Positions 8,586-63,495 of a stretch of 64,000 nt of DNA are shown here, piece by piece. Source of the DNA: Stieleria bergensis (GTDB taxonomy: Bacteria; Planctomycetota; Planctomycetia; Pirellulales; Pirellulaceae); assembly GCA_007745635.1 (NCBI GenBank), contig CP036272.1, positions 4,083,521-4,147,520 on the forward strand, in the 5' to 3' direction. The stretch's first letter is position 1; every line of letters starts with the position of its first letter. The translations under genes and the position numbers were made by a program. The notes below the pieces were generated by a model that worked only from the letters and a program-made list of their open reading frames with translations, searched no databases and was not told where the DNA came from.

Positions 8586-8672
8586 GGATTCGTTCTAATC
8601 GGTCCCGTGGGGAACCGATTCTTCCAATCCGCCTTTCAACCCTTCTCACTTACAACACCTGAAACGAATCCT

Positions 8673-52522: not shown

Positions 52523-54240
52523 GCGTTGCGGAGAAACTTGTTGATTATGAAGTATTGAAACGTGAGCCCGATGTGGTCGTAGCTGAGCTACGCCCATTCG
52601 TGTTTGCCAACGCTGGCGTTAAAGCAATTCGCGAATTGATGTTGGAACTAGCCGTTACGGGAAAGCTAACAGAGCGACTTCACGACGATGATTCCGCCGC
52701 TGCAGATCTTGATGAGATCGCTGCAGCTAGACAGACGCTGGCCGTATCATTGGGTGTGAGGATCAAAACTGCAAAACAGGCTGACGCTCGAACTCGTCAT
52801 GCTGATTGGCCGTGTGAGTGGGCGACAACATCGGTTGGCAATCTAGGCGTGTTTTTGGGTGGCGGTACACCCTCGAAACAGAATCCCGCGTACTGGGAGG
52901 GCGATATTCCGTGGGTAAGTCCGAAGGATATGAAACGCCCCTACATCGAGGATGCCATCGACCATGTATCTGCGGAAGGCGTCGAAAACTCATCCGCGAA
53001 AATGATTCCACGAGACTCTGTATTGATGGTGATTCGTGGAATGATTCTGGATCACTCCTTTCCGGTGGCTGTTTCTGAAAGAGACCTGACCATCAATCAA
53101 GACATGAAGGCATTGGTTTTGGCGATGCCAGCAAGTCGCGAATTCGTTCTGCTCGTATTCCAAGCGTTTAAACGCAGAGTCCTGAGTCTCGTCCAGCGAT
53201 CTTCTCACGGTACGTGCCGCTTGCCGATTGACGATGTCGCCAATTTGGCATTCCCACTTCCCCCGCTCGCCGAGCAGAAGCGGATTGTGTCGAAGGTGGA
53301 TCGTTTGATGGGGATTTGTGATCGGCTGGAGTCGGAGCGTCGGGAGACGTTGTCGCTGACCGACCGAAGCCGCCGCAGCGTGCTGGCGAGCCTGACGAGC
53401 AGCCGCGATGCTGCGGAACTCGCATCGAGTTGGCGTCGCCTCTCGGACCACTTCGAGATCCTCCACGACCGCCCCGAAACCCTCGCCGACCTCCGCCAAA
53501 CCATCCTCGCCCTCGCCGTCCAAGGCAAACTCGTCACGCAAGACCCGGATGAGGAAGAGATAGTTTTGCCAGAAATAAAGTCTCGGCATGTTCGACCAAT
53601 CAACAATGACGAAACACCATTTTGCGTTCCGCCAAACTGGCGTTGGTATCGGCTCGGCCAGATGGCGGAGTTTTTGAATGGAGATCGAGGGAAGAACTAC
53701 CCAAATCGAAGCGAATATGTCGCCGATGGAATTCCTTTCATCAATACCGGGCATATTGATCCAGATGGAACGCTATCGCAATCACGCATGAATTACATCA
53801 CTCGCGATAAATTCAATACGTTGCGTAGCGGCAAGATCATTCCCGGTGACTTAGTCTATTGCTTGCGAGGGGCAACGATTGGGAAAACGGCAGTTGTCGA
53901 ACCTTTGATCGAAGGCGCAGTGGCATCTTCGCTTGTTATAATTCGGCTAAGTTCTTGGCTTTCTCAACGGTACGCCTATCTGTACTTGAAAAGCCCGTTG
54001 GGCATGGAGCTGATCAAACGATTCGACAACGGTTCTGCCCAACCAAATCTCGGAGCTAAAAGTTTGGAGGAATACGTCGTTCCAACTCCACCGCACGCCG
54101 AACAGCACCGCATCGTCGCCAAAGTCGATCGCCTTCTCGCCCAATGCGACCGCGTCGCCGAGCAACTTCGCCAACGCCAAGCCACCACCGAACAACTGCT
54201 CACCGCGACCATTCACAGAATTCTCGAGGTGGCGCAGTGA
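52519..54240 (+). CDS. hsdS: Type I specificity S subunit
   Basis: A 573-aa protein with two target-recognition domains. TRD1 spans about residues 95-260 (W-A-T-T-S-V-G-N-L-G to P-L-P-P-L-A-E-Q-K-R-I-V). TRD2 spans about 375-540 (W-R-W-Y-R-L-G-Q-M-A-E-F to P-T-P-P-H-A-E-Q-H-R-I-V). Each is followed by a conserved helix with K-V-D-R-L. A repeat L-A-V-x-G-K-L in both halves is characteristic. It defines the bipartite recognition site; the two half-sites cannot be read from the protein. Base composition inside the TRDs is less GC-rich than in the conserved parts, typical for swapped domains. Confidence 0.95.
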   Translation: MSVAEKLVDYEVLKREPDVVVAELRPFVFANAGVKAIRELMLELAVTGKLTERLHDDDSAAADLDEIAAARQTLAVSLGVRIKTAKQADARTRHADWPCEWATTSVGNLGVFLGGGTPSKQNPAYWEGDIPWVSPKDMKRPYIEDAIDHVSAEGVENSSAKMIPRDSVLMVIRGMILDHSFPVAVSERDLTINQDMKALVLAMPASREFVLLVFQAFKRRVLSLVQRSSHGTCRLPIDDVANLAFPLPPLAEQKRIVSKVDRLMGICDRLESERRETLSLTDRSRRSVLASLTSSRDAAELASSWRRLSDHFEILHDRPETLADLRQTILALAVQGKLVTQDPDEEEIVLPEIKSRHVRPINNDETPFCVPPNWRWYRLGQMAEFLNGDRGKNYPNRSEYVADGIPFINTGHIDPDGTLSQSRMNYITRDKFNTLRSGKIIPGDLVYCLRGATIGKTAVVEPLIEGAVASSLVIIRLSSWLSQRYAYLYLKSPLGMELIKRFDNGSAQPNLGAKSLEEYVVPTPPHAEQHRIVAKVDRLLAQCDRVAEQLRQRQATTEQLLTATIHRILEVAQ

Positions 54241-55799
54241 TCTTTCGCCGAGAGAATGGAAAGAAAGGAAGGTCGTCCAAAACCGAATGGACCGCTTTTT
54301 TCAAAGGCGATGGCTGGGATGACTTCGGTTTCACCACCACATTCTCTGTTCGGATGGTTTCACCCGCAGGCGAACAGCATCAACTTGGGTCCGTGAAGAT
54401 CGGTAAGAAAGGGCTCAGCACCGGACGTATTTCCAGCCATCCTCTTCCGAATGAATTCGAGGAACTCACCAATACATTTTTCTCCATTGGACAAGATATC
54501 AACTATTACGCGACGCTAAAATCGCTGGGTGATGATGTGCGGGAGGAGTATTTGGCAAAGATGCGAGACATCGCCTTTCAGCCGAATCTAATCGAGAGGT
54601 TTGCGAGCGAGCCGTCGATGAACGAGTCACTATTCCGATCCGTTCATCGTAATTTGGCGAAGACTCAGTTCCATCGAGTCGCACTTGGCAAAAATCTTCG
54701 AGAGGCTTTCGAGTTTGCCTACACCAAGAAAACCAAGCAACCAATCGAGATGAATTTCCCCGTAATTCCGGAGTCTCAACCGCCAACGAACGTTCATGTG
54801 CTCATCGGAAGCAATGGGGTTGGCAAGACAACGCTTCTTAAACGGTTCGCTGATCTGGTGCGATTTCCAACGTTATCTTTACCGGGCGAGAGTTTTGAAA
54901 TCTCATCTAGCGAGGACGACACGGAAGAGTTTTGGAACCTCGTCGTTGTCGCATTCAGTGCGTTTGATACGTTTGGTGAAGAGCCGGCCGAGTTTGATTC
55001 AAAATCAGCGTCTGACGTCAAATATTTCTATTTCGGATTAAAGACCGAGGGCGAGGAGGTCGCCGAAGAGGATGAGGATGACGGAGAAGACGGCCAGCGC
55101 TACGTGCACAAATCGACGGATGACCTTGTTGAAGACTTTGAGAAGAACCTTGGTTTGATCGTTCGGTCGAGGAAGGGAAAAACGGAGAGGTTCGCAGATG
55201 CGATCAAAATTTTGTCGTCAGATCTTTTGATTGGGAGTTCATTGTTTCCGGAGGAATTCGACGGTGATGAATTTCTGTCAAATCCAAATGTCCAAGCGTT
55301 GGTCGAGGTTTTTCGGGAGATGAGCTCCGGACACAAGATCGTGCTCCTTTCCCTAGCTGGCTTGGTTAATCGCGTCGCTGAGAAGACGCTAGTGCTAATT
55401 GATGAACCGGAAACGCATTTGCATCCGCCGTTGTTGTCGGCGTACATCCGAGCGGTGTCAAAACTGCTGATCGAACTGAACGGTGTTGCGGTGGTCGCGA
55501 CACATTCGCCGGTGGTTCTTCAGGAAGTCCCGCAAAGCTGCGTCTGGAAACTGAATCGCCAGGGCGACTCGTTCCGAATCGACAGGCCCACGGTCGAAAC
55601 GTTCGGCGAGAACGTGGGCACACTGACTCGCGAGGCTTTTGGACTCGAAGTTACCCGCAGCGGTTTTTTTCAAATGCTCTCCGAGTTGTGCGAAAAGCAC
55701 GACAGCTATGAAGAGGTGCTCGAAGCGTTGGGCGGCCAGCTAGGCGCAGAAGGCCGCGCGATGGTCAGGATCATGCTTGCGGAGAGGGTGTCTCAGTGA
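54237..55799 (+). CDS. AAA ATPase, PtuA-like (Septu type)
   Basis: 520 aa from GTG 54237, which overlaps the hsdS stop (GTGA). The ATPase has a split nucleotide-binding domain: Walker A G-S-N-G-V-G-K-T at 191-198, an insertion of about 170 residues including an acidic stretch, then L-L-S-L-A-G-L-V and Walker B T-L-V-L-I-D-E-P-E-T-H-L-H-P with the H-loop A-T-H-S-P-V-V. This ABC/SMC-like, OLD-type ATPase followed by an HNH nuclease gene is the layout of Septu (PtuAB). It probably senses an infection signal and controls the HNH partner. Confidence 0.8.
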   Translation: MIFRRENGKKGRSSKTEWTAFFKGDGWDDFGFTTTFSVRMVSPAGEQHQLGSVKIGKKGLSTGRISSHPLPNEFEELTNTFFSIGQDINYYATLKSLGDDVREEYLAKMRDIAFQPNLIERFASEPSMNESLFRSVHRNLAKTQFHRVALGKNLREAFEFAYTKKTKQPIEMNFPVIPESQPPTNVHVLIGSNGVGKTTLLKRFADLVRFPTLSLPGESFEISSSEDDTEEFWNLVVVAFSAFDTFGEEPAEFDSKSASDVKYFYFGLKTEGEEVAEEDEDDGEDGQRYVHKSTDDLVEDFEKNLGLIVRSRKGKTERFADAIKILSSDLLIGSSLFPEEFDGDEFLSNPNVQALVEVFREMSSGHKIVLLSLAGLVNRVAEKTLVLIDEPETHLHPPLLSAYIRAVSKLLIELNGVAVVATHSPVVLQEVPQSCVWKLNRQGDSFRIDRPTVETFGENVGTLTREAFGLEVTRSGFFQMLSELCEKHDSYEEVLEALGGQLGAEGRAMVRIMLAERVSQ

Positions 55800-56671
55800 T
55801 CTCGCTCCAATTCCCAGAGTTCGACCACACTTCAGAGCAGTTCTACGACGATTCCGTGGCGACAACGACTCCGCTGGATAAGCGTGGGCGTTTGCAGGGT
55901 GCATCGGCAACTATTGTTCGGTCGATTGCCGAGTATCGCGATCTTGCAAGCAAGCGACGTCTCCATGATGTACCCGTAACATCGGACCCGTTCGGCGGCG
56001 CTAAACCCACCGATTTCAAGTCGCTTTACGGTTCGTACATGCAGACGAAAACTGGAGCCGGTCGGGAATTCTACGACGCTCTGATGGTTGCAAACTCCCC
56101 GCCCCTTTGTGCCTATTGTGGCACTCGAGAGGCCAAGGCGCTTGACCATTTCCTGCCACGCAAACACTACCCGCATCTTTCGATCACTTTGGAAAACATC
56201 GTTGCGTGTTGCACTGACTGCAACACGGAAAAACTAGACGCGGTCCCTGGTGGTCAGCATGAGACATTTTTCCACCCGTACTACGAGGCGTTTCCGGATC
56301 AAGATTGGTTGACCGCAAGCGTCTTGTACGACAAACCTGTCGCCGTGGTTTTTCGGGTGACCGACGGCATCGCCGAAGTCGATAGGATTCGTCATCAGTT
56401 TCACGAATTGAAATTGGGTCGGATTTTCGGATTGCACGCAACTACCGAGTTGATGAGTGGTTCGAGGCGACTGATCGAACTCGGTAGGTGCTCGGAATCC
56501 TCGCTTCGAGAACATTTGTGGGGGACTGCAGACAGTGCAAGCGAATTTCCTTGGTACCCATGGAAGCCTACCTTGTACCGAACGCTCGCCGAAGATGATT
56601 GGTTTTGTGAAGAGGGCTATGAATTGTTGTTGCCGATTCAGCCATCCGGTAACCGATCAGGAACCACGTAG
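55796..56671 (+). CDS. HNH nuclease, PtuB-like (Septu type)
   Basis: 291 aa from GTG 55796, overlapping the ATPase stop (again CAGTGATCT at the junction, as at 54237). The zinc-dependent HNH core is C105-A-Y-C108-G, A-L-D-H-F-L-P-R (Asp117, His118), T-L-E-N134-I-V, C139-T-D-C142-N. Length and domain position fit PtuB-type partners. It would nick or cut DNA when released or activated by the ATPase. Its stop is followed after six bases by the GHKL ATPase gene. Confidence 0.82.
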   Translation: MISLQFPEFDHTSEQFYDDSVATTTPLDKRGRLQGASATIVRSIAEYRDLASKRRLHDVPVTSDPFGGAKPTDFKSLYGSYMQTKTGAGREFYDALMVANSPPLCAYCGTREAKALDHFLPRKHYPHLSITLENIVACCTDCNTEKLDAVPGGQHETFFHPYYEAFPDQDWLTASVLYDKPVAVVFRVTDGIAEVDRIRHQFHELKLGRIFGLHATTELMSGSRRLIELGRCSESSLREHLWGTADSASEFPWYPWKPTLYRTLAEDDWFCEEGYELLLPIQPSGNRSGTT

Positions 56672-56677
56672 TCAAAT

Positions 56678-57571
56678 GTGTTTTGGTACTGGCACCCTGA
56701 AGAAATCGGGAATGACGGAGAAATCAAGGCAATGATCTTGGACGTCGACCTAGTGGAACGGCTTCAACGTGCTGTCGCGAAAGGAAAGTCGATTGAGACC
56801 TTCATTTCAGCGTTGACCTCTGCGACGCTTCCGGGGCTTGTCGAATATGGTTGCCTCCGCAGCGGCTACCCATCGCTGCCACGTTTACCGCAGGCAATTG
56901 TGGAATCGGAATTGGGATGTGCTTTGGAACGTGTATCGTCGCCGATGGGATTGCGTTGGAGCGGTACTCGGCGACCACCGCCGGCTCTGATGACACCTCA
57001 ACGTTTTGAGTTCATTGTCGTGCTGGGCGAACCGGAGGTCACGAGCGATCGGTGGTTTGAATTTGCGTCGCGACTGCGACTGTCCGCGAAGGCGATTGGA
57101 TTTTCGATGACTGAGGCGACCGACTTCGGTGCCGCCGTCCAAGAAATGGCCGACAACGCGGCGCTTCACAGTTCGACCAGTGTCGGTGCATTGATCGGGT
57201 ATCGGGCTATCGAAGAATCAATCGTTTGCACCATCGCAGACGTTGGGGTCGGGGTCTTGGCCTCGCTTCGCACAAGTCCGCGTTACAAGCATCTGAAGTT
57301 GCACAGCGAGGCGATTCGGACGGCGCTGAAGGAAGGTGAGTCACGACTCGATGATCGACCGGGCGGCTTCGGTTTCAACGACGTGTTCAAAACCATGGCC
57401 AAGCACCGGGGCACCGTTCGCTTTCGCAGCGGTGAAGCTGCAGTATCCCTGGACGGCCAAGATGACTTCACCGACATCAGCTTGGTGCACTCAGTCGATT
57501 TCCGACCAGGATTCCAAGTCACGATTTGCTGCCGGTCCTCCGATCGCTCATCGAAAGAAAACCTGATTTAA
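56678..57571 (+). CDS. GHKL (histidine-kinase-type) ATPase, anti-sigma-like
   Basis: 297 aa from GTG 56678; ATG 56732 is an alternative start 18 codons in. The C-terminal half carries the Bergerat ATP site: N-box V-Q-E-M-A-D-N-A-A-L-H-S, G1 D-V-G-V-G and G2 G-G-F-G-F-N-D-V-F. There is no dimerisation/phospho-His helix, so it is not a sensor kinase but resembles stand-alone RsbW/SpoIIAB-type ATPases that often pair with STAS proteins. The N-terminal about 130 residues are unknown. It opens a compact operon whose second gene encodes a STAS-like protein. Confidence 0.8.
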   Translation: MFWYWHPEEIGNDGEIKAMILDVDLVERLQRAVAKGKSIETFISALTSATLPGLVEYGCLRSGYPSLPRLPQAIVESELGCALERVSSPMGLRWSGTRRPPPALMTPQRFEFIVVLGEPEVTSDRWFEFASRLRLSAKAIGFSMTEATDFGAAVQEMADNAALHSSTSVGALIGYRAIEESIVCTIADVGVGVLASLRTSPRYKHLKLHSEAIRTALKEGESRLDDRPGGFGFNDVFKTMAKHRGTVRFRSGEAAVSLDGQDDFTDISLVHSVDFRPGFQVTICCRSSDRSSKENLI

Positions 57572-57654
57572 ATAGGCTGTGGGTATTGCCAGCATAATCG
57601 AACGGTCCTATTCTTAGGTAATGCACCTGAGAGAGTGAGGTTCTCGAAAACGCC

Positions 57655-58227
57655 GTGGCACGAATTATTCTCCTTACCGAAACGCTCCAAACCGGCTTCC
57701 TTCAGGGAAGGCCGCTCGGACGCAAGCATTTCCCAATGCTCTGCGCTGCGATCAGTGAATCGCCCGAGGGAGGATTGGTGCTGTTGGATTTTCGAGGAAT
57801 CGACATCGTGACGGGGTCATGGATCAATGAAGCATTGGTTCCGCTGATCGGATGGATGGCCGACGGCCGCAACGATCTTTATCCGATCTTGATGAACCTG
57901 AAATCAGATTGGATCGACGATTTACAACTGGTGTCGGAGTGGAACCATTGCTGTTTCCTCGCCGGTGAAGGTTCGACGCCCCCACGATCGGCGGTCTTGG
58001 CCGGCGCGTTGGATCCTGGGCAACGACAAACATTCGATGCGGTGATCGCTTCGTCGGGCATCACGGGCGCGGAGCTCGAACGGCAGCACGCTGAAACCAA
58101 GGTGAAGGCAACAGCGTGGAACAACCGGCTCAAAGATTTGTTTCAGAAACGCTTGCTGCAACGTGAAAAGCGTGGCCGTGAACAGGTCTACCGATCGGTC
58201 GTTGCGGAGGTTGTTTTCCATGGGTGA
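57655..58227 (+). CDS. STAS-like (DUF4325-type) protein
   Basis: 190 aa from GTG 57655. The strand-turn L-V-L-L-D-F-R-G-I-D-I-V-T-G-S-W-I-N-E-A-L (about residues 42-62) is the STAS-like DUF4325 core; such proteins are found next to GHKL ATPases. The C-terminal half is helical and basic (N-N-R-L-K-D-L-F-Q-K-R-L-L-Q-R-E-K-R-G-R). The expected role is a switch partner of the upstream ATPase by analogy with anti-anti-sigma factors. It overlaps the next gene by eight bases. Confidence 0.65.
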   Translation: MARIILLTETLQTGFLQGRPLGRKHFPMLCAAISESPEGGLVLLDFRGIDIVTGSWINEALVPLIGWMADGRNDLYPILMNLKSDWIDDLQLVSEWNHCCFLAGEGSTPPRSAVLAGALDPGQRQTFDAVIASSGITGAELERQHAETKVKATAWNNRLKDLFQKRLLQREKRGREQVYRSVVAEVVFHG

Positions 58228-58600
58228 GAATCTCAAAAAGGGTCACTGCGAAGCCTTCAAAAAGGGCACCGACCGCCAGATGCTCGTCATGTCATCGCCG
58301 CAATTGTTCCGGCGTCCCGACATGGAACTAACGCGGGTCGATGCCAACCTCCTTGACGGAAAGCTGGTTTCGATTGGCGAAACGTTGCTGGCTCAACAAT
58401 CCGGCGATCTTCCGATGGTGTTCTTGAGTAAAGGAAGTGAACCAATCGCTACGATTGAGGGTGAAGGCGCAGCCAAGCTTGTCGAAGCGATTGAGGGATC
58501 GGATTGTCCGGATTTCGCCGAGGTGAATGTCGTCGATGTTTGTGACATCTCGGACAGCATCACCGTGCAATTGATCGACGAGGAGCGAAACGATGGTTAG
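58220..58600 (+). CDS. Unknown protein, 126 aa
   Basis: From ATG 58220, overlapping the previous stop by eight bases; GGAGG is 12 bases upstream. It is soluble and acidic, with no cysteine cluster; predicted alternating strands and helices (L-D-G-K-L-V-S-I-G-E-T-L-L-A-Q-Q, V-F-L-S-K-G-S-E-P-I-A-T-I-E-G-E-G-A). No known domain was recognised. Its place between the STAS-like and Cys-rich genes, with the same eight-base overlaps, makes it an obligate part of the operon. Confidence 0.7.
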   Translation: MGENLKKGHCEAFKKGTDRQMLVMSSPQLFRRPDMELTRVDANLLDGKLVSIGETLLAQQSGDLPMVFLSKGSEPIATIEGEGAAKLVEAIEGSDCPDFAEVNVVDVCDISDSITVQLIDEERNDG

Positions 58601-59693
58601 CACACCCAAGCAAATGAAGACCCTGCGACCGTCCGTGAAAGTTCCGGAGGATTTCGTCGCTGCTGGGTGCGAAACATGCGGACTGCTTCAGCATTGTGGT
58701 GGCATGCGGAACGAACGTGCTTTGCTCACCTGCGTCGACCAGTTCTGTTGCGGTTCGGGCGACTGTGACAACGTCTGCCCCGACCATCCCGACTATGCGA
58801 AGCGAGTGAGGGAAATTGGTGGCTTCGGACGGCACCGCATCGGGCCGATGCAACAAAACGATGCTCGCCTTCCTACCTACGTTCCGCTGGTTCATCACGG
58901 CTACCGTCGTCAATCGAATTTGCACGCGGAAGCGGTCGCGATGTGCCCGTACAACTTTTTGAAACAGAAGGGGAAACGCTACGTTTCCAACGTTCAGGAT
59001 CAAGACTCACTTCGCGACAAGTTCAAGATCGCCGCGGACGCGAAGCTGATTCTTTGCGGGACCGCCAAAGATAAGCCGCTGGAGGCATATTGGACGCATC
59101 GCCGCGTCGAGCAGACGATGGACTTGATCGCCGCGATCAATCCCGACCTGTACATCGCTCCGAACTTTTCGATGTTCTTGGACGTGCCGCGTCACGACAA
59201 CCTATTTAACATCAAGCGTCAGTTGCTTTGTCTATCGGAGTTGTCCGCTGCCGGCGTGTCGGTGGTTCCACACATCAGCGCAACGATGCCACATGATTGG
59301 GATAATTGGCGCGCATTCTTGCACGAACACATCGACATCCAGCACATCGCATTCAATTTCCAAACAGGCTACAGCGATCGCGGTGAGGCGAAACTCGCAT
59401 TGAATCGGTTGGTGCGGTTGCAGCAGGCTCTCGGCCGCAGTCTTTCACTGATCATGATCGGCGGTTCGCAGTTTTTGGAAATCGCGATGCTAAATTTTGG
59501 ACGCTTGACTGTCGTCGATTCCACTCCGTTCATGAAGACTCAACATCGCCAGCGACTGGTAATGAACGGCTCAAAGCGACATTGGGTAAAGTCGCCAACC
59601 CAGCGGGGAACGCCTATCGACGATTTGCTTCAACATAACGTCGGCAGTTATTCGACACAGATCGCTCATCGAGTGGGTGAGCTGTTCAATTAG
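58593..59693 (+). CDS. Cys-rich protein, possibly DUF4417-like barrel
   Basis: A 366-aa protein overlapping the previous gene by eight bases. The N-terminus has eight cysteines within 37 residues (C26, C29, C35, C47, C52, C53, C58, C62), suggesting a zinc or Fe-S site. The rest (D-L-Y-I-A-P-N-F-S-M-F-L-D-V-P-R, G-V-S-V-V-P-H-I-S, I-A-F-N-F-Q-T-G, L-S-L-I-M-I-G-G-S-Q-F) reads like a TIM-type barrel. It loosely resembles DUF4417 phage-associated proteins, but this is not a firm match. Function unknown; possible nucleic-acid-processing enzyme. Confidence 0.6.
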   Translation: MVSTPKQMKTLRPSVKVPEDFVAAGCETCGLLQHCGGMRNERALLTCVDQFCCGSGDCDNVCPDHPDYAKRVREIGGFGRHRIGPMQQNDARLPTYVPLVHHGYRRQSNLHAEAVAMCPYNFLKQKGKRYVSNVQDQDSLRDKFKIAADAKLILCGTAKDKPLEAYWTHRRVEQTMDLIAAINPDLYIAPNFSMFLDVPRHDNLFNIKRQLLCLSELSAAGVSVVPHISATMPHDWDNWRAFLHEHIDIQHIAFNFQTGYSDRGEAKLALNRLVRLQQALGRSLSLIMIGGSQFLEIAMLNFGRLTVVDSTPFMKTQHRQRLVMNGSKRHWVKSPTQRGTPIDDLLQHNVGSYSTQIAHRVGELFN

Positions 59694-59768
59694 ACAATTG
59701 ACCGAGGATTCTCGTGCAGCGGTCTTTTGCGTGGCAACGAAGTTCTATCACAGCAAGAGAACGATTGA

Positions 59769-60767
59769 ATGAATCTAACGCGACTATTCGCTTACGAAGT
59801 TTATCCACAGAAGAACGACGAGAACCCCGTCGCGCCTTCTGGCGGAAAAATCGTCCAAAGCACCCCACTGAAGAAAACGCTCTCGCAACTGATTCGAGAC
59901 AACCGATTGGAAACGCAGACGCCAATTGCGTTTACGGTCGAAGATCCCAAGGCAAAGCAACGCGTGAACGTCGTCCGGGAGTCCGTGCTCAACTTCGCCT
60001 TTGGTCGTGGAGACACAGTGAAAAATAACGCTGGCTATCTTGCATTGCGACTGTCGGAAGTAATGGACGGACGTTCCAATCCGTTCTTGCTTTTGATCTC
60101 GTGCTTCAAGGAAGGCGATGCGTCAAGCATCGTGTTGTGGGCGTTCCCAAAAGACGAAGGGCTGCAGTTTTCGGCAACCGCGAATGGAGCGAAGGTGACG
60201 GTGATCGAGGATGTATTCAATATTTCTTCCACACTCCGAAAGGCTGCGATCTTCACCGGCAAGAACGAGGAAAACTCACTCTGGGAAGGTCGAATGGTTG
60301 ACCTTCAAAGTGGACGAACGGATTTATGGGTCGAACGATTTCTTGCCTGCCGACTTTCTGTCAGTGGAGTTCACGGCACCACGATCCTATCCGAACACCT
60401 GTCGCAAGCATACCGACAAACCAAGTCGGATTCCGTACGGGAAGAACTCTTCAACGCCATCATCGGTGTGCGAACGGCACCTGTTCGCCGAACTTCGTTT
60501 CTGAAGTTCGCAAATGATTATCTCGGCGACGGTGCGAAGGCGGAGTTCTTATCGATCGTTCCAAGCGAGCAACAGTCGATGAGTTTTGACTTCGATCGCG
60601 AGACGTTTGAGGCCAAGATTGGCATTCGGGTTGTTAAAACTCCTGACCAAGTCATGGTGGCCGCTCCCCTGCAAACGATTGGCAATACGGTCAAAATTGC
60701 AGGGGACCGTATCGACCTATCTTCCCAGATTGAGTCGCAGTATTTGAAGGCGGGTAAGCGTGGTTGA
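59769..60767 (+). CDS. Unknown protein, 332 aa
   Basis: ATG 59769, 75 bases after the previous stop. No signal peptide or TM segment. Text such as K-N-N-A-G-Y-L-A-L-R-L-S-E-V-M-D, L-L-L-I-S-C-F-K-E-G, V-L-W-A-F-P-K-D and S-F-L-K-F-A-N-D-Y suggests an alpha/beta protein, faintly like nucleoid-associated NdpA/37-kDa proteins, but I do not claim homology. It ends in an eight-base overlap with the hydrolase gene, so the two probably act together. Confidence 0.7.
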   Translation: MNLTRLFAYEVYPQKNDENPVAPSGGKIVQSTPLKKTLSQLIRDNRLETQTPIAFTVEDPKAKQRVNVVRESVLNFAFGRGDTVKNNAGYLALRLSEVMDGRSNPFLLLISCFKEGDASSIVLWAFPKDEGLQFSATANGAKVTVIEDVFNISSTLRKAAIFTGKNEENSLWEGRMVDLQSGRTDLWVERFLACRLSVSGVHGTTILSEHLSQAYRQTKSDSVREELFNAIIGVRTAPVRRTSFLKFANDYLGDGAKAEFLSIVPSEQQSMSFDFDRETFEAKIGIRVVKTPDQVMVAAPLQTIGNTVKIAGDRIDLSSQIESQYLKAGKRG

Positions 60768-62013
60768 GAACGACTGGGAGAACGACCGAACTCAGGGTCT
60801 CGCAATTTGTGGACGGCTTGAGACGTACCTAAGGAATTGTTTGCAGCCACTCGATCTTGATTTAGATATTCGCTGCACCTTGAAAAGCAGTGATGACGAG
60901 AGCCCGAGTTGCGAAATGTCGGTTCCGCGTGGTTCGCTCGGCGATGTCCAAACAATGCTTGCCAAAGAGCTGAGCTTGCTTTCCGAATCAACTGTTGGGG
61001 AAGAATCGGAGCTCACCTTTGAAGCCGTGATTCCGGCAATTCTGAAGAGCGAAAATTGGAACGGAGACCAGGTCTTTTTGCTCACCATTCATCAGTCTGA
61101 ATCTCTACCTGAACGTAATGAGGGAGAATTACCAGCGATAGTGAAGTTCTCCGTGGACCCAAATTACGGACGGTCGGCAACGGAAATCACCCACGTAATC
61201 GTGATGATCCACGGTATTCGCGACATCGGAAATTGGCAGCACAATGTGACTCACAATTTGGTCGCGAAGGGAACCGCAGTCGAGATGCTTCAGTATCAGC
61301 TGTATCCGGCCATGCGTTTTTTGTGGCCATGGGACGGCTCGAAAACTCCGGTGCAACGCGTCCTAAAGCGGATGCGAGCGCTGAAGAATCAATATCCAAA
61401 TGCTCGAATGTCCGTCATCGCTCACAGCTTCGGCACCTATGTGACGCTGAAGGCGATTGAAGCTGACGCCGATCTCCAATTTTGGAAAATCGTATTTTGT
61501 GGTTCGGTAGCCAACGAGCAATTTGAGTGGTCCGACATCAAGCGACGGATCGGGGACGGCGACCGCGCAACGAAGGACTTCGTCATCAACGACTGCGGAA
61601 CTGGTGACGTTTTCCCGATCCTTGGTGCGACTTTCGGATGGCACTACGGCATGGCTGGTGCCACAGGGTTTTCAGAGGGTTTCATTGTCAATCGCTTCCA
61701 CAAATCGGTTGACGGTCTCAAAGGAGGGCACGGACTGTACTTCAGCCCTGAATTCGTTCGCCAGCATTGGCGACCATTCTTGATCGAGGATCAAGCACCG
61801 AGTTGTGGAGACGGAGTTCAAGGAGAGGATCTCCCGCGCATCGTCAAATGGCTGTACCACGGTTGGTTCCGGTGGCTCTGTCGATTTTTGGCTTGGATCG
61901 CTCTCTTCATTGCGTTCCTGGCGGGTGTGGTCTTATCGGCCCGGCTTGTAATCGCAGCCTGGCCTGCGATTTGCGATTTTACGCGACAATTGTTCGGTCT
62001 CGATTCGGCCTGA
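60760..62013 (+). CDS. Alpha/beta hydrolase with C-terminal membrane anchor
   Basis: 417 aa from GTG 60760 (eight-base overlap upstream). The hydrolase core begins near residue 145: V-I-V-M-I-H-G-I-R-D (oxyanion H-G) and nucleophile Ser223 in I-A-H-S-F-G, with candidate Asp in N-D-C-G-T-G-D and His in G-G-H-G-L-Y-F. A strong hydrophobic segment (W-L-C-R-F-L-A-W-I-A-L-F-I-A-F-L-A-G-V-V, about 372-402) anchors the C-terminus. The N-terminal 140 residues are unknown. As last gene of the operon, it may be a lipase-type effector acting at the membrane. Confidence 0.8.
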   Translation: MVENDWENDRTQGLAICGRLETYLRNCLQPLDLDLDIRCTLKSSDDESPSCEMSVPRGSLGDVQTMLAKELSLLSESTVGEESELTFEAVIPAILKSENWNGDQVFLLTIHQSESLPERNEGELPAIVKFSVDPNYGRSATEITHVIVMIHGIRDIGNWQHNVTHNLVAKGTAVEMLQYQLYPAMRFLWPWDGSKTPVQRVLKRMRALKNQYPNARMSVIAHSFGTYVTLKAIEADADLQFWKIVFCGSVANEQFEWSDIKRRIGDGDRATKDFVINDCGTGDVFPILGATFGWHYGMAGATGFSEGFIVNRFHKSVDGLKGGHGLYFSPEFVRQHWRPFLIEDQAPSCGDGVQGEDLPRIVKWLYHGWFRWLCRFLAWIALFIAFLAGVVLSARLVIAAWPAICDFTRQLFGLDSA

Positions 62014-62347: not shown

Positions 62348-62761
62348 ATGGATTGGGTTGCCTCGTTTTTCGGGGGCGGTGCGGTGAAAAAGGCGGTTCA
62401 AAAGAAACGGACGACGACGGATTTCGGCGGTCGGCTGCGTGAAAAACGGCTGGCGAAGCAGATCACGTTGCGGAAGTTCGCGACCATGATCGGGGTGTCG
62501 TCGACGTACCTGTCGCAGGTCGAACAGGGACGGTACGACCCGCCGACGGCGGATCGGGTGCGGCAGATCGCGGAGATCCTGGGCGAGGACGTGGACCTGT
62601 GGATCGGGCTCGCTGACCGTGTGCCGGAGGACATGGAGGAGATTGTCAAAGAGCATCCCAAGGAGATGCCGGAACTGATGCGGGCGGCTCGGGGTTTGAC
62701 GCCCGAACAATTCGCCAAACTTCAACAAACCATCGGACGCATGAGAGCAAAGGTGAAGTAA
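62348..62761 (+). CDS. XRE-family HTH regulator paired with ImmA/IrrE
   Basis: 137 aa from ATG 62348; GTG 62384 (V-K-K-A-V-Q-K-K-R) is a likely alternative because the first 12 residues look unlike the family. HTH: L-R-E-K-R-L-A-K-Q-I-T-L-R-K-F-A-T-M-I-G-V-S-S-T-Y-L-S-Q-V-E-Q-G-R-Y-D-P-P (about residues 30-66). Then I-A-E-I-L-G-E-D-V-D-L-W-I. It sits two bases ahead of a metallopeptidase gene, the classic repressor-protease arrangement in which the ImmA-type protease cleaves the repressor upon stress. Confidence 0.92.
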   Translation: MDWVASFFGGGAVKKAVQKKRTTTDFGGRLREKRLAKQITLRKFATMIGVSSTYLSQVEQGRYDPPTADRVRQIAEILGEDVDLWIGLADRVPEDMEEIVKEHPKEMPELMRAARGLTPEQFAKLQQTIGRMRAKVK

Positions 62762-62763
62762 CC

Positions 62764-63495
62764 ATGGTCGTGGATTTACTGGCACAGGGAATTGACGTGC
62801 CCGAACTTTCGCCGGAAACAATCGCTGCGATGGCCAGCGACGTGCTGGCGGATTACGAGCGGATGGTCGGTGCGAACAACGAGGCTCCGATCGAAGTCGT
62901 CGATATTGCGACCAGTCTGCTCGGGTTGGAGTTTGCGTTTGCGGATTTGCAAACGGAGTTCGAGGATCGCATCCATGGGGTGCTGTACACACGCCGGAAG
63001 TTGATTCACATCGACACGGAACTGGATCCGGATCGGTGTCCGGCGATGACGCCTCGGTTTAACTTCACGCTTGGGCATGAAATCGGGCATTGGGTTTTGC
63101 ACCGGCACTTGTTCATTGACGACGACGGCCATCCGTTGGTGTTCGATGACGACAACGCGCCCGACATCATCTGCCGTTCAACGGGTCGGCGGCCGTTGGT
63201 CGAACGACAAGCCGACGCATTCGCGGGTTGTCTGTTGATGCCGGAACCGTTGCTGCGGCAAGCGTGGAAATCGTTCGTCGGTGACGACGGTCCGATCAAC
63301 GATTCGGAAATCAAGAAATCTTCGCCGAAGGTCGATCCGAATCGGATCTCGTTCATTGATGGCGATGGCGAGCGAGCGACGGATCCGCAGCGACTGTTGC
63401 GGGAAGCGTTCTGCGAACCTTTGGCGGCGAAGTTCATCGTTTCTCAGGAGGCGATGCGGATTCAATTGGAAACACTGGGACTGTTCTCAGAGTAG
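62764..63495 (+). CDS. ImmA/IrrE-type metallopeptidase
   Basis: A 243-aa zinc protease: H-E-I-G-H-W-V-L-H-R-H at about residues 109-119 (HExxH), and a third ligand in R-Q-A-D-A-F-A-G-C-L-L-M-P (the E of the usual E-x-x-A-x-x-F-A is D here). It is coupled to the XRE gene at 62348-62761 and expected to inactivate that regulator on a signal such as DNA damage or phage infection. Such pairs control mobile elements and defence loci. Confidence 0.9.
   Translation: MVVDLLAQGIDVPELSPETIAAMASDVLADYERMVGANNEAPIEVVDIATSLLGLEFAFADLQTEFEDRIHGVLYTRRKLIHIDTELDPDRCPAMTPRFNFTLGHEIGHWVLHRHLFIDDDGHPLVFDDDNAPDIICRSTGRRPLVERQADAFAGCLLMPEPLLRQAWKSFVGDDGPINDSEIKKSSPKVDPNRISFIDGDGERATDPQRLLREAFCEPLAAKFIVSQEAMRIQLETLGLFSE

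What the first reader, a model, noticed from the sequence alone, without database searches (positions are those of the whole stretch)
56678..62013. Candidate undescribed operon: GHKL ATPase, STAS-like switch, Cys-rich protein and membrane-anchored hydrolase
Six genes on one strand directly follow the R-M/Septu-like genes (6 bases after the HNH gene). Three junctions share the same 8-base overlap (58220-58227, 58593-58600, 60760-60767), which suggests long-standing co-inheritance. The first two proteins look like an anti-sigma/anti-anti-sigma pair, the fourth has an eight-Cys cluster, and the last is an alpha/beta hydrolase with a C-terminal TM helix. Sensor-switch-effector logic in a defence island is a recognised pattern, but this gene set does not match a system I can name. 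That it is a defence system is an inference.
Basis: partly seen in the sequence, partly recalled or inferred. Interest (0 to 1): 0.78.

Follow-up and report, generated by a model that had tools for sequence, protein, structure and literature searches.

The report
Switch cassette beside swappable phage defences
Four of these six genes form a mobile genetic switch, related to a recently described stress-activated bacterial immune controller but with two extra parts, which sits beside many different anti-phage systems in several bacterial phyla; the last two genes look like one such system, probably a membrane-attacking one.

Summary
The six genes are real, but they are two modules, not one six-gene system.

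Module 1 (orf1-orf4: GHKL, STAS-winged helix, small protein, DUF4417) recurs complete in 56 of 58 non-redundant loci, from Planctomycetota to Alpha-, Beta- and Gammaproteobacteria, Myxococcota, Acidobacteriota and Armatimonadota. orf1/orf2 match the published immune controller pair CapK/CapS (EMBO J 2026) in kinase core, phospho-serine and STAS-winged-helix layout. They differ: no N-terminal HTH, mostly another gene order, another operator, two extra obligatory proteins. I found a conserved operator (TCTCAC-N9-GTGAGA type; 57611-57633 in the window) on the STAS-gene promoter. Module 1 lies beside Gabija, Kiwa, pAgo, HerA, Mokosh and others; closely related cassettes carry different neighbours.

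Module 2 (orf5-orf6) follows module 1 in only one other genome seen. Elsewhere orf5 homologs pair, without module 1, with hydrolase, patatin or RelA/SpoT enzymes: a likely two-gene abortive-infection unit.

Control of the downstream operon, the input signal and the DUF4417 role are inferred. No second operator was found before the effectors, so a self-contained four-gene system remains possible. New variant of a known kind.

The parts
57586..57614 (+). Promoter of the STAS-small-DUF4417 operon (possibly reading on into orf5-orf6): TTGCCA, 17 bases, TATTCT
   Evidence: Consensus scan, 9 of 12 matches, one of 4 sites found against 2.9 expected, so weak alone; a similar layout (-35, -10, operator) is visible by eye upstream of the STAS gene in many of the loci printed
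57611..57633 (.). Operator TTCTTAGGTAATGCACCTGAGAG, predicted binding site of orf2, overlapping the -10 box; 21 bases before the orf2 start
   Evidence: Symmetric weight matrix learnt on 57 upstream regions, window score 10.0 against a maximum of 9.5 in 1140 shuffled regions
56732..57571 (+). orf1, CapK-like GHKL ATPase/kinase (ATG start preferred to GTG 56678)
   Evidence: E138, N142, H146, D170, G172, G174 invariant in 56 of 56 homologs; aligns with the CapK kinase core, N142 = CapK N218; phrog_3364 E=7e-15
57655..58227 (+). orf2, CapS-like STAS + winged-helix repressor; S55 = CapS phospho-serine S54
   Evidence: S55 in 57 of 58 homologs; the family profile matches residues 1-162 of the 182 of CapS, E=4e-10 in a one-sequence search, and PDB chains 9z71/9z72, E=3e-4 and 2e-3
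58220..58600 (+). orf3, small conserved protein of unknown fold, invariant N-terminal Met-Gly
   Evidence: Found in 58 of 58 non-redundant loci (a 54-residue remnant in L057); M1 and G2 in 58 of 58; only single weak Pfam hits among 51 members, best E=0.05
58593..59693 (+). orf4, DUF4417 protein with N-terminal 8-Cys domain and probable TIM-barrel-like enzyme domain (barrel inferred from motif spacing only)
   Evidence: DUF4417 E=5e-5, below Pfam's cut-off; homologs on plasmids annotated DUF4417; seven Cys and D160, E164, W167, N191, R200, R209, H227, D235, T258 in 57 of 57
59769..60767 (+). orf5, partner/recogniser protein of a two-gene effector unit
   Evidence: Family found in 6 of 397 genomes of the class and in 6 plasmid records of Rhizobium/Agrobacterium (2 of 6 opened); in the nine neighbourhoods opened the next gene on the same strand codes for an enzyme or, in L095, for a protein of the same length as the RelA/SpoT partner
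60760..62013 (+). orf6, alpha/beta hydrolase with C-terminal membrane segment, candidate effector
   Evidence: 53% identical homolog in L011 and a second hydrolase partner in L072

Best explanation
orf1-orf4 are a mobile control cassette of the CapK/CapS type with two added obligatory parts; orf5-orf6 are the two-gene immune operon it controls in this genome. Shown by sequence: the conserved four-gene set, the kinase and phospho-serine residues, the STAS-winged-helix layout, the conserved palindrome on the STAS promoter, the swapping of neighbours. Inferred: in quiet cells the orf2 dimer sits on 57611-57633 and silences the operon that reads through orf2-orf3-orf4 into orf5-orf6 (75-base gap after orf4, no terminator-like match on + within that gap). 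On stress, the kinase orf1 (upstream of the operator, so available) phosphorylates S55, orf2 leaves the operator, and the whole operon is induced. The DUF4417 enzyme with its small partner is probably the added sensing or signal-shaping arm, since it is kept with the switch whatever the neighbour. orf5 then recognises the infection and licenses orf6, which attacks the membrane and stops phage spread.
For: Four-gene set in 56 of 58 non-redundant loci; the 51 genome loci were found through the STAS gene alone, so the other three genes are a fair test. The GHKL gene precedes the set in planctomycetes and follows it elsewhere, on either strand, so the set survives rearrangement. CapK/CapS residues align. 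Palindrome: 42 of 57 upstream regions beat the best of 1140 shuffled ones; the best site ends 3-22 bases before the start codon in 55 of 57; at threshold 9.0, 48 hits in 44 of 57 loci lie just upstream of STAS genes against 6 anywhere else in 912 kb. First downstream gene, same strand, is a known defence gene in 20 of 52 loci with at least 1 kb of room: Gabija 8, Kiwa 4, pAgo 4, one each of Mokosh, HerA, Ppl-like, type IIG R-M (HMM support). L056 and L059 share 91% DNA identity through the cassette, then carry different effectors, then 87% again. At least 12 effector changes on the tree of 26 labelled cassettes.
Against: No operator-like site precedes the effector operons, unlike CapKS which has two sites. 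In 18 loci the GHKL gene is convergent to the set and lies between it and the effector, so read-through from the STAS promoter can hardly drive the effector there. 24 of 52 loci have none of the named defence systems among the genes I could label; 18 of these matched none of my 23 reference proteins at all. A terminator-like match on + lies inside orf5 (60065-60086), though such matches are no commoner than in shuffles (8 found, 7.7 expected). No aromatic residue equivalent to CapK W68 could be placed. orf5-orf6 as a defence system rests on gene pairing alone.
Confidence: 0.6

Rival explanations
1. The four genes are a self-contained immune or toxin-antitoxin-like system, as VapKSC is: the kinase and STAS repressor control only their own operon, and the DUF4417 enzyme with the small protein is the effector. 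It merely settles in defence islands next to other systems.
For: The only operator found is autoregulatory. Four genes strictly kept, DUF4417 with invariant polar residues as in an enzyme. In convergent-GHKL loci the effector is not in the operon. 24 of 52 loci show no named defence system near by. VapKSC is a precedent for a kinase/STAS pair owning its own toxin.
Against: 20 of 52 loci have a known defence gene as the very next co-directional gene, and in the compared pairs the shared DNA ends near the cassette edge where the neighbour differs, more than island residence would need. orf2 keeps a DNA-binding winged helix, unlike VapS.
Confidence: 0.3
2. All six genes are one dedicated defence system.
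For: Same strand, tight overlaps, and the same six-gene order in L011 with the same three 8-base overlaps.
Against: Only one other genome seen holds all six; the cassette occurs with many other neighbours, and orf5 homologs occur with other enzymes; none of the seven such loci scanned holds any of the four cassette genes.
Confidence: 0.05
3. orf5 is a nucleoid-associated (NA37/YejK-like) DNA-binding protein and orf5-orf6 is a DNA-sensing effector pair.
For: One of 9 orf5-family members matches NA37 collinearly over 258 residues at E=0.12 (E=0.08 for the longer form).
Against: Not significant; eight of nine members do not match; profile against E. coli YejK gives nothing.
Confidence: 0.15

Closest known systems
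CapK + CapS (Chambers et al., EMBO J 2026, PMC13373217)
   Same: GHKL kinase plus STAS-winged-helix repressor beside diverse immune operons; kinase Asn and substrate Ser align; also often sandwiched between an R-M system and a second immune operon, as in this window
   Different: No N-terminal HTH in the kinase (mostly 240-290 against 368 residues); STAS gene followed by two extra conserved genes; GHKL before or after the set; operator TCTCAC-N9-GTGAGA instead of TTAA palindromes; one site found, not two; neighbours Gabija, Kiwa, pAgo, none of which the paper's main text names (its supplementary data sets were not seen)
VapKSC (same paper)
   Same: CapK-like kinase without the HTH, STAS partner, operon with its own enzyme
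   Different: VapS has a short C-terminal region instead of a winged helix; the enzyme is a PIN nuclease; three genes, no DUF4417 or small protein in the description
CapH + CapP (also in this window, 62348-63495)
   Same: DNA-damage control pair of immune operons
   Different: HTH repressor cleaved by a peptidase; other protein families
ParB-CTPase-DUF4417 fusions of phages (PMC12704722, passages read)
   Same: DUF4417 domain
   Different: Fused to a ParB fold; the passages name no kinase/STAS partners; function unknown
Two-gene abortive-infection effectors (Kiwa; patatin or RelA/SpoT effector units, recalled)
   Same: A partner protein beside a membrane- or nucleotide-attacking enzyme
   Different: The orf5 members scanned match no KwaB profile; only one weak unrelated PADLOC hit (L071, TniQ, E=0.02)

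Membership tests
CapK/CapS | GHKL kinase with intact N, G1 and G2 boxes | tested here: met
   E138, N142, H146, D170, G172, G174 in 56 of 56; G212 and G214 in 55 of 56; CapK matched at E=1.3e-11 in a one-sequence search, kinase core only
CapK/CapS | STAS + winged-helix substrate with conserved phospho-serine | tested here: met
   S55 in 57 of 58, aligned with CapS S54; match to residues 1-162 of 182 of CapS
CapK/CapS | N-terminal HTH domain in the kinase | tested here: not met
   The N-terminal HTH region of CapK has no counterpart in the alignment
CapK/CapS | capK immediately followed by capS | tested here: not met
   Met in the seven planctomycete loci including the window; elsewhere the GHKL gene follows the DUF4417 gene on either strand
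CapK/CapS | Operators with TTAA half-sites before capS and before the downstream operon | tested here: not met
   A different palindrome, found before the STAS gene only
CapK/CapS | Neighbouring immune operon | tested here: met
   20 of 52 first downstream genes; 28 of 52 loci with any of the named reference defence genes
CapK/CapS | ssDNA-binding aromatic (W68) and ssDNA-activated kinase | tested here: inconclusive
   Aromatic columns exist in the N-terminal part but none can be equated with W68; activation is not testable here
CapK/CapS | Induction by DNA damage | not testable with these tools
   Needs a reporter assay
Kiwa (for orf5-orf6) | KwaA/KwaB profile match | tested here: not met
   No PADLOC hit to KwaA or KwaB for orf5, orf6 or the homologs scanned
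NA37/YejK (for orf5) | PF04245 match over cut-off | tested here: not met
   Best 12.7 bits against a cut-off of 24.6, one member only
DUF4417 (for orf4) | PF14386 match over cut-off | tested here: inconclusive
   23.2 bits against a cut-off of 28.9 for the window protein; homologs on plasmids are annotated DUF4417

The most novel reading that the evidence does not exclude
DUF4417 with the small protein is a previously unknown sensing or signal-making arm that feeds the kinase/STAS switch (or is itself its first effector), giving a portable four-part immune controller that different defence systems, Gabija above all, have repeatedly come to adjoin, with one operator type shared across phyla.
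Probability: 0.4. Interest if true: 0.75.

Novelty: new variant of a known kind. Interest (0 to 1): 0.6.

Why it matters
How immune operons are kept silent until needed is an open question, and for Gabija, Kiwa and pAgo I found no controller of this type in the papers searched. A four-gene cassette found beside many of them, with a predicted phospho-site and a predicted operator, makes the question directly testable: one reporter, two point mutants, one gel-shift. It also supplies a search handle (the operator plus DUF4417) for unrecognised defence operons; the orf5/enzyme pairs are a first candidate.

Tried and rejected
Rejected: a six-gene unit (only L011 shares all six). KwaB for orf5: no profile match. 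NA37 for orf5: one weak collinear hit, not confirmed with E. coli YejK. A shared N-terminal adaptor between orf6 and the patatin effectors: suspected from reading, not supported by profile alignment. A second operator before effector operons: not found. Known fold for DUF4417 or the small protein by sequence against solved structures: nothing significant. A phage origin: no STAS match in 50,697 phage records, none for orf5 or its relative L073; one locus in IMG/VR (L063), whose host or viral nature I did not check.

Limits: the genome loci were found by the peptide pattern [ATP]TAWNNRLx[SDG], so invariance of that stretch in those 51, and in L063, is by construction; it is free evidence only in the 6 plasmid loci and the window. 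My gene caller was a simple codon-usage one; it gave no genes for L033, which is missing from the neighbour counts. Neighbour labels come from BLAST to 23 reference proteins, of which 17 have a PADLOC HMM hit (Gabija, Kiwa, pAgo, HerA, Mokosh, type IIG, Hachiman, and a Ppl-like one that rests on the C-terminal part only); DUF499, DUF1156 and DUF3800 labels are annotation or recall, and orf5/orf6 are the window's own. Only 8 of the 42 matching plasmid records were opened. Rows dropped: L001 (own locus), L023 (near copy of L022), L008 and L009 (DUF4417 without the cassette); from the operator matrix L061 (broken genes); from the tree L033, L057 and L061. The tree is a quick one and warns of long branches, the window's among them. 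I have no genome-wide null for the neighbour enrichment, and related loci are not independent; the argument rests on the very next gene being a defence gene in 20 of 52. The HSFG elbow, TIM-barrel and sigma-70 readings are from recall and motif shape.

Full report
WHAT WAS CHECKED. The six ORFs, their strand and the three 8-base overlaps are as described. The GHKL gene most likely starts at ATG 56732, not GTG 56678, since homologs align from there. HMM libraries gave little: GHKL E=0.07, DUF4325 E=0.05, DUF4417 E=5e-5 (below its cut-off), hydrolase families near 1e-3, nothing for orf3 and orf5 in Pfam. PADLOC gave nothing for orf1 and orf3-orf6 and one marginal hit for orf2 (CARF, E=0.04). The genes just upstream are a PtuA-like ATPase and an HNH protein (PDC-M01A E=8e-171, PDC-M01B E=1e-65), and a CapH/CapP-like pair starts 334 bases downstream of orf6.

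THE UNIT IS FOUR GENES. Plasmid relatives of the DUF4417 protein (42 of 72,556 records matched; 8 of the 42 opened) lie in two contexts. In the two Streptomyces plasmids opened it sits beside ParB and amidoligase genes. In the planctomycete plasmid and the five alphaproteobacterial ones opened, it follows a STAS gene and a small gene. A scan of genome contigs (one genome for each of 84,980 species) with the STAS alignment gave 51 loci, and IMG/VR gave one. With the six plasmid loci and the window, and without a near copy (L023), that is 58 loci. HMMs of the four families find all four genes in 56 of 58; L033 ends at a contig end before the GHKL gene, and L057 keeps only STAS and a remnant of the small gene. 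L061 is counted although its STAS and GHKL genes are broken. STAS, small and DUF4417 are contiguous and co-directional; the GHKL gene comes first in planctomycetes and last elsewhere, on the same or the opposite strand. In two plasmids (L005, L006) the annotated 'hypothetical protein' after DUF4417 lies antisense to the real GHKL gene. In 397 genomes of the window's class, 9 carry the STAS gene, including 1 of the 5 listed genomes of its genus (the window's own): patchy, as for a mobile element. Of the stretches fetched around these, six hold all four genes (two of them the same loci as L003 and L014) and L085 is cut by its contig end.

RELATION TO CapK/CapS. The STAS profile finds PDB chains 9z71 and 9z72 (E=3e-4 and 2e-3). 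A 99-residue piece of 9z71 matches at 100% the plasmid protein WP_001567865.1, which PMC13373217 names as E. roggenkampii CapS; 9z72 shows Ala at the phospho-site, as the paper's V. cholerae CapS S58A would. I read parts 1 to 6 of 12 of that paper, its bioinformatics section, and word searches. It shows that CapK, a ssDNA-activated GHKL kinase, phosphorylates a STAS serine of the repressor CapS and so induces the adjoining immune operon. Against the reference capKS locus (L096), our S55 (57 of 58) aligns with the CapS phospho-serine, our N142 (56 of 56) with CapK N218, and the orf2 profile matches residues 1-162 of the 182 of CapS. Differences: no HTH in the kinase, mostly another gene order, two extra genes, another operator. 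The paper's main text contains no mention of Gabija, Kiwa or Argonaute, and its only DUF family is DUF4747; its supplementary data sets were not seen.

THE OPERATOR. Upstream of the STAS genes stands a palindrome. The exact form CTCA-N11-TGAG occurs in 29 of 58 upstream regions, while in 20 shuffles no 4-base gapped palindrome reached more than 3. A symmetric matrix learnt on 57 regions places 42 above the best of 1140 shuffled regions and 15 not. The best site ends 3 to 22 bases before the start codon in 55 of 57; the two others (L038, L043) score low, as do L015, L036, L057, L003 and others. At one threshold (9.0), 48 hits in 44 of 57 loci lie just upstream of STAS genes (four loci have two overlapping hits), and 6 lie elsewhere in 912 kb, where one set of shuffled loci gives 7. 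The matrix was trained on these same upstream regions, so the scarcity of sites elsewhere and the position are the independent part. In the window the site is 57611-57633 and overlaps a -10 box (TTGCCA-N17-TATTCT). No matrix hit precedes the effector operons. A search for another shared palindrome there gave little: in the 18 convergent-GHKL loci the commonest 4-base one was in 5 against a shuffle maximum of 3, with close relatives among the loci, so I do not take it as a signal; the other three groups did not exceed shuffles. This differs from CapKS and weakens the claim that orf2 directly controls every neighbour.

NEIGHBOURS SWAP. In 52 loci with at least 1 kb downstream (window left out), the next gene is co-directional in 37 and a known defence gene on the same strand in 20: Gabija 8, Kiwa 4, pAgo 4, and one each of Mokosh, HerA, Ppl-like and type IIG R-M. 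28 of 52 have any of these or Hachiman in the fetched stretch; 24 have none of them, of which 6 matched DUF499/DUF1156, DUF3800 or orf5/orf6 references and 18 matched nothing. HMM checks on representatives support the names. A further planctomycete of the window's family has a pAgo gene next (L084). Pairs of related cassettes with different effectors are direct evidence: L056/L059 (93% protein identity; 91% DNA identity across the cassette and 4 kb upstream, different effector, 87% identity beyond), L007/L022 (89% protein; Mokosh/DUF3800), L040/L034 (78%; HerA/pAgo), L005/L006 (74%; Kiwa/Gabija). On the cassette tree the 26 labelled rows need at least 12 effector changes (the least possible for 10 labels is 9; shuffled mean 16.8, as low in 0 of 200), with 5 for Gabija and 3 for pAgo. 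So neighbours are partly inherited and repeatedly exchanged.

OPERON IN THE WINDOW. orf5 starts 75 bases after orf4, and no terminator-like match on the + strand lies in that gap. One such match lies inside orf5 (60065-60086) and two after orf6 (62223, 62297); with 8 matches found on both strands against 7.7 expected, none is evidence. Read-through from the STAS promoter into orf5-orf6 is therefore plausible here, with orf1 outside the repressed operon.

orf5-orf6. L011 alone shares the pair behind the cassette (orf5 68%, orf6 53% identical). The orf5 family occurs in 6 of 397 genomes of the class, the window's included. In each neighbourhood opened, the next gene on the same strand is an enzyme: hydrolase with a C-terminal hydrophobic segment (window, L011, L072), patatin phospholipase (L070, L071; Pfam E=4e-20 and 1e-31), RelA/SpoT-type protein (L062, L073, and Rhizobium L094; in Agrobacterium L095 the partner of equal length is annotated hypothetical). 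None of the seven loci L062, L070-L073, L094 and L095 (11-18 kb each) holds any of the four cassette genes, while L011 gives all four in the same scan. L070's pair lies beside Wadjet-like genes and L073's beside type I R-M genes (both named by reading). One partner with exchangeable toxic-type enzymes suggests an abortive-infection unit; no experiment or profile proves it.

MECHANISM AND DOUBTS. The best reading is a CapKS-type switch with a DUF4417 arm, controlling the orf5-orf6 effector unit here. Against it stand the single autoregulatory operator, the convergent-GHKL loci and the 24 of 52 loci without a named defence neighbour; these keep alive the rival of a self-contained four-gene system like VapKSC. 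DUF4417 has seven invariant Cys and at least nine other invariant polar or aromatic residues, as an active site would; its fold is unknown to me (no significant match in solved structures) and structure prediction was never available. Papers: DUF4417 occurs in 3 papers of the library, of which I read passages of one (PMC12704722); Gabija with GHKL and STAS in none, CapK with CapS and Gabija in none, DUF4325 with defense in two that did not look related from their listing. Subscription papers and preprints are mostly not in the library.

Noticed in passing
window 62348-63495: A CapH/CapP-like pair (HTH E=2e-9; M78 peptidase E=1e-18) starts 334 bases downstream of orf6: a second, unrelated damage-responsive controller pair right after the first.
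   Followed up: partly
window 54144-56671: PtuA-like ATPase and HNH protein (PDC-M01A/B) between the type I R-M genes and the cassette; the paper on CapKS reports the sandwich of R-M, controller and immune operon in nearly 20% of its loci.
   Followed up: partly
L005:9054-9953 and L006:9054-9893 (minus strand): Public annotation puts a hypothetical protein antisense to the real GHKL gene in two rhizobial plasmids.
   Followed up: yes
L062:7869-9622, L073:8448-10222, L094:4872-6631: orf5 family protein overlapping a RelA/SpoT-domain gene, in planctomycetes and rhizobial plasmids: a candidate two-gene nucleotide-toxin unit.
   Followed up: partly
L070:6622-9760 and L071:8527-11011: orf5 family protein beside a patatin phospholipase; in L070 the two genes overlap by 8 bases, and genes that look like Wadjet JetC/JetD by reading lie near by.
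   Followed up: partly
L008 and L009: DUF4417 beside ParB-domain and three amidoligase genes on Streptomyces plasmids, without the other cassette genes.
   Followed up: no
L012:11155-12354 and L022:11712-12860: DUF3800-like proteins (by reading) directly behind the cassette in a Phycisphaerae MAG and in Rhizobiales: a possible further effector, no PADLOC match.
   Followed up: partly
window 8643-8665: A second operator-like site (score 11.1) far from the cassette; about the number expected by chance.
   Followed up: no
L057 and L061: Decayed cassettes next to Gabija genes, one truncated and one with split STAS and GHKL genes.
   Followed up: no
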